A stretch of DNA of 64,000 bases. It comes from Betaproteobacteria bacterium Ga0077527. Its GTDB lineage: Bacteria; Pseudomonadota; Gammaproteobacteria; Burkholderiales; SG8-41. The position numbers and the translations under genes are program-made. Location: assembly GCA_001464815.1 (NCBI GenBank), contig LNDW01000020.1:186001-250000 (forward strand), written 5' to 3'. A model generated the notes under the pieces. The model did not search any database, had not been told where the DNA came from, and saw only the letters and a list, made by a program, of their open reading frames with translations. Position 1 is the first letter of the stretch, and the number at the start of each line of letters is the position of its first letter. Positions 18,795 through 19,397 of the stretch are shown here, piece after piece.

Positions 18795-18825
18795 AACAAG
18801 GGCGGCTGCGGCCGCCTTTGTTTTT
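18795..18825 (+). terminator. Rho-independent terminator
   Basis: ACAAGGGCGGC-TGC-GGCCGCCTTTGTTTTT just after TctC stop. Confidence 0.75.
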
Positions 18826-19397
18826 CAGAGAACCGGGTTTCCACCCGCTGCCGCCATCGCCGCGACCAGTTCACCCTGCTTCGCCGAAAGTGTCTTCAGC
18901 CAGCGCTGACCGCCGAAGGTAAAACCGATCCAGTAGCCGAGTTCGACAAGCTCGGGTTCGCTGAACTCGCCCTTCAACTGCGCCCACAAGGCATCATCAG
19001 CCTGATTGGGGTCGTACATGATCGCGTCGGCGTAACGCAGCGCGATTTTTTCACGCTCGCTGAACTTGGCTGATTTTTCATACTGCATCAGCTCCGCCAT
19101 CTTGCTGTCTGCCTGCCGCGCGGACCGCGCGGTGCCCTGATTGCTTCAGTAGCCGCATTCGATGGTGAAGGCGACGTAGGCGCGCAGCGTTTCCTTGAGG
19201 TCGTGCTCAAGCACACCGGCGCCGTTGTCGAACAGCATTTCCCGGGTCTGCGTGAACGAACGCATGACATCGGGCTGGTGGGCGCGGATCGCCTGGTTTT
19301 CAGGGCCGGGACGGCCGGCGGCAATGGCCTCGTCCAGCCAGCGGCGGATTTGCGGGTCGGTCACGGCATCGGGAGTCACATAACTGATGCGGGCCAT
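18825..19397 (-). CDS. carboxymuconolactone decarboxylase/AhpD-like family protein, putative selenoprotein with in-frame TGA (CGY-U) at 19146-19148
   Basis: ORFs 19146..19439 and 18825..19100 lie in the same frame, separated only by one TGA and 15 sense codons; combined ...VAFTIECGY[TGA]SNQGTARSARQADSKMAELMQYEKSAKFSEREKIALRYADAI; TGA is at the second position of CxxC. Confidence 0.75.
19116..19148 (-). promoter_or_regulatory. candidate bacterial SECIS hairpin with Sec UGA codon
   Basis: UGA-(19 nt)-loop; stem CCGCGC / loop GGUCC / stem GCGCGG immediately downstream of UGA. Confidence 0.65.

What the first reader, a model, noticed from the sequence alone, without database searches (positions are those of the whole stretch)
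18825..19397. Probable selenoprotein: AhpD/carboxymuconolactone-decarboxylase-like protein with in-frame TGA making a CxxU motif
Seen directly: two minus-strand ORFs (19146..19439 and 18825..19100) are in the same frame, separated by one TGA (19146-19148) and 15 sense codons. Read through, the protein is ...LKETLRAYVAFTIECGY-[TGA]-SNQGTARSARQADSKMAELMQYEKSAKFSEREKIALRYADAIMYDPNQADD... The TGA sits where this family carries the second Cys of its redox CxxC. There are no other stops in the ~190-codon gene. Established: AhpD-like proteins with Sec replacing this Cys have been described from marine metagenomes (from memory). Inference: the TGA is Sec, not a lesion.
Basis: partly seen in the sequence, partly recalled or inferred. 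Interest (0 to 1): 0.87.

Follow-up and report, generated by a model that had tools for sequence, protein, structure and literature searches.

The report
Selenocysteine-containing AhpD/CMD-like redox protein
A bacterial gene that looks broken by a stop codon is almost certainly intact: the stop is read as the rare amino acid selenocysteine in the active site of a small AhpD-like redox protein; such proteins are known as a kind, but this branch has no curated family model and annotation pipelines would split it in two.

Summary
The minus-strand gene 19397..18825 (190 aa, ATG with a GGAG site) has one in-frame TGA at 19148-19146, at the second position of a CxxC motif (C81-G-Y-U84). All 55 close ortholog loci found (73% identity or more; 35 distinct sequences, nearly all betaproteobacterial MAGs) keep that TGA, while 120 of 120 listed protein-database homologs have Cys there. 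Thirteen bases after the TGA sits a bacterial-type SECIS hairpin (6-bp stem, GGUCN loop). It is paired in every ortholog and has three compensatory double changes, each costing an amino-acid change. Synonymous variation falls from about 0.6 to about 0.2 only over these codons, while the protein beyond the TGA stays under purifying selection. The genome encodes tRNA-Sec, SelA, SelB and SelD (itself with a Sec codon). A lesion, an assembly error and code reassignment are effectively excluded. CxxU AhpD/CMD selenoproteins have been known since 2005. This one falls below every curated model tried (NF053654, TIGR01926, PF02627) and lacks the catalytic His that is invariant in solved AhpD-like proteins, so it is a new, Sec-only subfamily of a known kind. 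Peroxidase or thiol-redox activity is likeliest (about 50%) but inferred only.

The parts
18825..19397 (-). Selenoprotein gene, 190 codons plus terminal TGA; AhpD/CMD-like fold
19146..19148 (-). In-frame TGA read as selenocysteine (U84), second position of the CxxC-type motif C81-G-Y-U84
   Evidence: TGA in 55/55 close orthologs; Cys in 120/120 listed protein-database homologs
19155..19157 (-). Codon for C81, the presumed partner of Sec in the CxxU pair
   Evidence: invariant in alignment A1
19191..19193 (-). Codon for E69, 12 residues before C81, the spacing of Glu36/Cys48 in PA0269 and Glu118/Cys130 in M. tuberculosis AhpD
   Evidence: invariant in A1; spacing from PMC3141380
19116..19132 (-). 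Bacterial SECIS hairpin CCGCGC-GGUCC-GCGCGG, starting 13 nt after the TGA; loop 19122-19126
   Evidence: 100% of 198 cells paired, 3 compensatory double changes, covariation score reached by 0/500 shuffles; consensus fold -12.5 kcal/mol; synonymous distance minimum
19405..19408 (-). Probable Shine-Dalgarno GGAG
   Evidence: sequence upstream of ATG 19397

Best explanation
The gene encodes a selenoprotein. During translation, SelB carrying Sec-tRNA(Sec) binds the GGUC-loop hairpin just downstream of UGA 19148-19146, so the UGA is decoded as selenocysteine 84 instead of termination. The product is an all-helical AhpD/CMD-like protein of 190 aa. Inferred mechanism: U84 is the reactive residue attacking a hydroperoxide or other electrophile, C81 resolves it as a selenenylsulfide, E69 and Y83 supply part of the AhpD proton relay, and a cellular thiol reductant regenerates it. 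Shown computationally: the gene, the TGA position, the SECIS, selection on both sides, and the Sec machinery. Inferred: actual Sec insertion, and the chemistry and substrate (a peroxidase or thiol-redox role is about 50% likely; the confidence given here is for the selenoprotein part).
For: The TGA is conserved in all 55 close ortholog loci and 35 distinct sequences. Cys is aligned there in 120/120 listed homologs. SECIS: GGTC begins 19 nt after the TGA in 54/55 orthologs, against 2.05% of 8551 control codons having GGTC at 17-22 nt. The stem is fully paired, with three double changes (L030, L035, L086) that change the protein (R to Q, R to L, A to V) while keeping the pair. Synonymous distance is 0.21-0.23 over codons 1-11 after the TGA against about 0.6 elsewhere; dN/dS is 0.14 upstream, 0.23 downstream. 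tRNA-Sec, SelB and SelA are adjacent on contig C21; SelD carries its own UGA. selA is found in all 22 family genomes that have the TGA ortholog. Structure: pLDDT 86.6; the 32 best PDB matches are all AhpD-like or CMD-family chains with probability 0.91-1.00.
Against: There is no protein-level evidence. The association with selA within the family is not significant on its own (22/22 versus 32/38, Fisher p = 0.077), because nearly all members have selA. The His invariant in the solved AhpD-like proteins (C+7) is Gly here, with Gln87 at C+6, so peroxidase activity is uncertain. There is no conserved AhpC or reductase neighbour.
Confidence: 0.95

Rival explanations
1. The TGA is a nonsense mutation or assembly error in a decaying gene, or two separate proteins are made.
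For: Standard gene calling gives two ORFs.
Against: The same codon is TGA in 35 distinct sequences from independent MAGs; dN/dS 0.23 beyond the TGA; no frameshifts; conserved SECIS.
Confidence: 0.01
2. UGA is decoded as another amino acid (code reassignment or near-cognate readthrough to Trp or Cys).
For: The reading frame stays open whichever residue is inserted.
Against: The terminal codon of this gene and of most orthologs is TGA used as a stop; the aligned residue is Cys, not Trp; a SECIS and the full Sec machinery are present.
Confidence: 0.02
3. It is a selenoprotein, but not a peroxidase: a Sec-dependent reductive enzyme acting on an organic electrophile, for example reductive dehalogenation like Bmp8, or a step of carboxylate catabolism.
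For: The best solved sequence relative of profile A1 is the debrominase Bmp8 (6ohi, 36.8 bits), which also ranks fifth by fold (6ohj). The AhpD His is missing. In the window the gene lies between a TctC-type receptor and a Zn-alcohol dehydrogenase/quinone oxidoreductase-like gene.
Against: Identity to Bmp8 is low (15-17% in the fold match). TctC genes number at least 150 in this genome, so that neighbour says little. Neighbours are not conserved beyond the genus apart from TctC.
Confidence: 0.2

Closest known systems
AhpD-like selenoproteins, COG2128/TIGR01926 CxxU (PMC1088965, PMC2398784, PMC13188914)
   Same: AhpD-like helical fold, Sec at the second position of CxxC, bacterial SECIS downstream, Cys homologs known
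   Different: TIGR01926 scores 32.8 bits against cut-off 81.8; AhpD-like His replaced; distinct clade with UFBoot/SH-aLRT 94/96
CMD-domain selenoproteins, PF02627 CxxU (PMC1088965)
   Same: CMD superfamily, CxxU
   Different: PF02627 18.8 bits against cut-off 23
NF053654 YciW-related (seleno)protein
   Same: Best NCBIfam match, spanning residues 15-174 of P0001
   Different: 57.7 bits against cut-off 310
Bmp8 debrominase (PDB 6ohi/6ohj)
   Same: Best solved relative by profile; CxYC motif aligned with CxYU
   Different: Cys enzyme, low identity; substrate of the present protein unknown

Membership tests
Bacterial selenoprotein | In-frame TGA conserved among orthologs and aligned with Cys in homologs | tested here: met
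   55/55 TGA, 120/120 Cys
Bacterial selenoprotein | SECIS stem-loop right after the UGA with a small G-containing apical loop | tested here: met
Bacterial selenoprotein | tRNA-Sec, SelA, SelB and SelD in the genome | tested here: met
Bacterial selenoprotein | Selenium incorporated in the protein | not testable with these tools
   needs 75Se labelling or MS
AhpD-like peroxidases (PA0269/M. tuberculosis AhpD type) | CxxC/CxxU redox pair with Glu 12 residues before the first Cys | tested here: met
   E69, C81, Y83 and U84 by spacing
AhpD-like peroxidases (PA0269/M. tuberculosis AhpD type) | Catalytic His seven residues after the first Cys (invariant in the solved members, PMC3141380) | tested here: not met
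   G88 here; Q87 invariant in A1
AhpD-like peroxidases (PA0269/M. tuberculosis AhpD type) | Overall fold | tested here: inconclusive
   Foldseek probability about 1.00 to AhpD-like entries but best E 3.8e-3 and TM 0.43-0.51 by query length
NCBIfam NF053654 YciW-related (seleno)protein | Score above curated cut-off 310 | tested here: not met
   57.7 bits
NCBIfam TIGR01926 peroxidase-related | Score above curated cut-off 81.8 | tested here: not met
   32.8 bits
Pfam PF02627 CMD | Score above gathering cut-off 23 | tested here: not met
   18.8 bits

The most novel reading that the evidence does not exclude
A Sec-only AhpD/CMD subfamily, without the AhpD His, has a non-peroxidase redox chemistry (for example reductive dehalogenation or another catabolic reduction). 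In this betaproteobacterial lineage, Sec use would then be maintained largely by several CMD-superfamily selenoproteins rather than by formate dehydrogenase.
Probability: 0.2. Interest if true: 0.65.

Novelty: new member of a known kind. Interest (0 to 1): 0.42.

Why it matters
It adds a well-supported selenoprotein subfamily that no curated model tried here covers. Orthologs 73-94% identical exist in public MAGs at the DNA level, yet the best full-length hit in the protein database searched is only about 64% identical, as expected if gene callers cut the gene at the UGA. It gives a natural pair of Sec and Cys clades for testing why Sec is kept, and a clean example of an RNA hairpin forcing amino-acid changes.

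Tried and rejected
A scan of the window with Rfam gave nothing. selA co-occurrence was too common to discriminate (p = 0.077). Gene neighbourhood: a TctC receptor lies near 23 of 33 loci, but the genome has at least 150 TctC genes, so this was rejected as a functional clue. Centring a genome search on the Acidimicrobiia failed. The literature search for Bmp8 found no held paper. Tree: the deep paralogs have very long branches and the bootstrap had not settled, so only the grouping of the Sec clade and at least two Sec/Cys changes are used.

Full report
Observation. The minus strand from ATG 19397 to the terminal TGA at 18827-18825 is one open frame except for a TGA at 19148-19146. Residues 81-84 are C-G-Y-U. 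A GGAG lies upstream of ATG 19397. The ORF start at 19439 in the ORF list is a mechanical GTG start.

Homology. The read-through protein has 296 homologs at E up to 0.001 in a 5.8-billion protein set. The best are about 61-64% identical, several are named Acidimicrobiia, and all 120 listed ones have Cys at the U84 column and at C81. Six-frame genome searches find much closer orthologs, 73-94% identical, in the same genus and other genera of the family and in public Betaproteobacteria/Burkholderiales MAGs. All 55 that span the site carry TGA. Close orthologs are Sec-only. A tree puts the sampled Sec orthologs in one clade (94/96) separate from the Acidimicrobiia-type Cys clade, with at least two Sec/Cys changes overall.

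SECIS. The 17 bases starting 13 nt after the TGA form CCGCGC-GGUCC-GCGCGG. All 198 cells of the 6-bp stem are paired; sliding the partner by 1-3 columns drops this to 19-64%, and 0 of 500 shuffles reach the covariation score. Pair 18-32 changes C-G to U-A (L030) and A-U (L035); pair 21-29 changes G-C to A-U (L086). In each case one side is synonymous and the other replaces an amino acid (R to Q, R to L, A to V), as expected if the RNA is under selection. GGTC begins 19 nt after the TGA in 54 of 55 orthologs; the background at other codons is 2%. The loop resembles the GGUCU of E. coli fdhF at a similar distance (from memory). Synonymous distance is about 0.6 along the gene but 0.21-0.23 over the first 11 codons after the TGA.

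Selection. dN/dS is 0.14 before and 0.23 after the TGA (0.25 beyond the SECIS), so the part after the TGA is translated and constrained. One of the 35 rows (L071) was read past its own end by the script; its effect on these averages was not tested but should be small.

Machinery. The genome (3.4 Mb, 91% complete) has tRNA-Sec (75.9 bits; ARAGORN anticodon TCA), SelB and SelA together on contig C21, and SelD on C7 with its own UGA (GGGUGCK). Three further CMD-superfamily genes in this genome have a TGA at CxYU (C7:140749, C15:304137, C21:32402). Two of them have a GGTC-loop hairpin 19-21 nt after the TGA. Formate-dehydrogenase-like molybdoenzymes were found without in-frame stops.

Fold and function. 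The AlphaFold model (pLDDT 86.6, pTM 0.86) matches AhpD-like and CMD proteins, with TM-scores of 0.43-0.51 by query length that leave the arrangement of the outer helices uncertain. By profile the best solved relative is Bmp8 debrominase, then the PA0269-type AhpD-like proteins. The AhpD proton relay (PA0269 Glu36, Cys48, Tyr50, Cys51, His55; PMC3141380) is matched by E69, C81, Y83 and U84, but the His position is G88, with an invariant Q87 beside it. A peroxidase or thiol-redox role is therefore the first guess and not a finding.

Known or new. CxxU AhpD-like and CMD-domain selenoproteins were reported in 2005 (PMC1088965), in 2008 (PMC2398784) and in the 2026 inventory (PMC13188914). Two text searches of the held library found no paper on this betaproteobacterial subfamily, and it fails the curated cut-off of every model that matched it. 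I file it as a new member of a known kind. Whether unnamed GOS reads of 'AhpD-like 1' include this subfamily could not be checked.

Noticed in passing
G000:C7:140749-141270 (L114), C15:304137-304556 (L115), C21:32402-32788 (L117): Three more CMD/AhpD-superfamily genes in the same genome with an in-frame TGA at CxYU; two have GGTC-loop hairpins 19-21 nt downstream.
   Followed up: partly
G000:C7:99371-100300 (L017): selD is itself a probable selenoprotein gene (GGGUGCK motif).
   Followed up: partly
whole genome G000; window example 17804-18775 (+): At least 150 TctC-type (Bug) substrate-binding receptor genes in a 3.4-Mb genome; the search stopped scoring at 150 of 219 candidates.
   Followed up: no
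G000:C7:118174, C15:179681, C20:234912 (window about 48912-51044): Formate-dehydrogenase-like molybdoenzyme genes show no in-frame TGA, so Sec use here may rest mainly on CMD-family proteins and SelD.
   Followed up: partly
G035:C186 (L118), G049:C528 (L119), L042-L045: Other TGA-bearing CMD clades about 46-54% identical to this protein, with different hairpin loops (such as AGTTY or AGGCT) instead of GGTC.
   Followed up: partly
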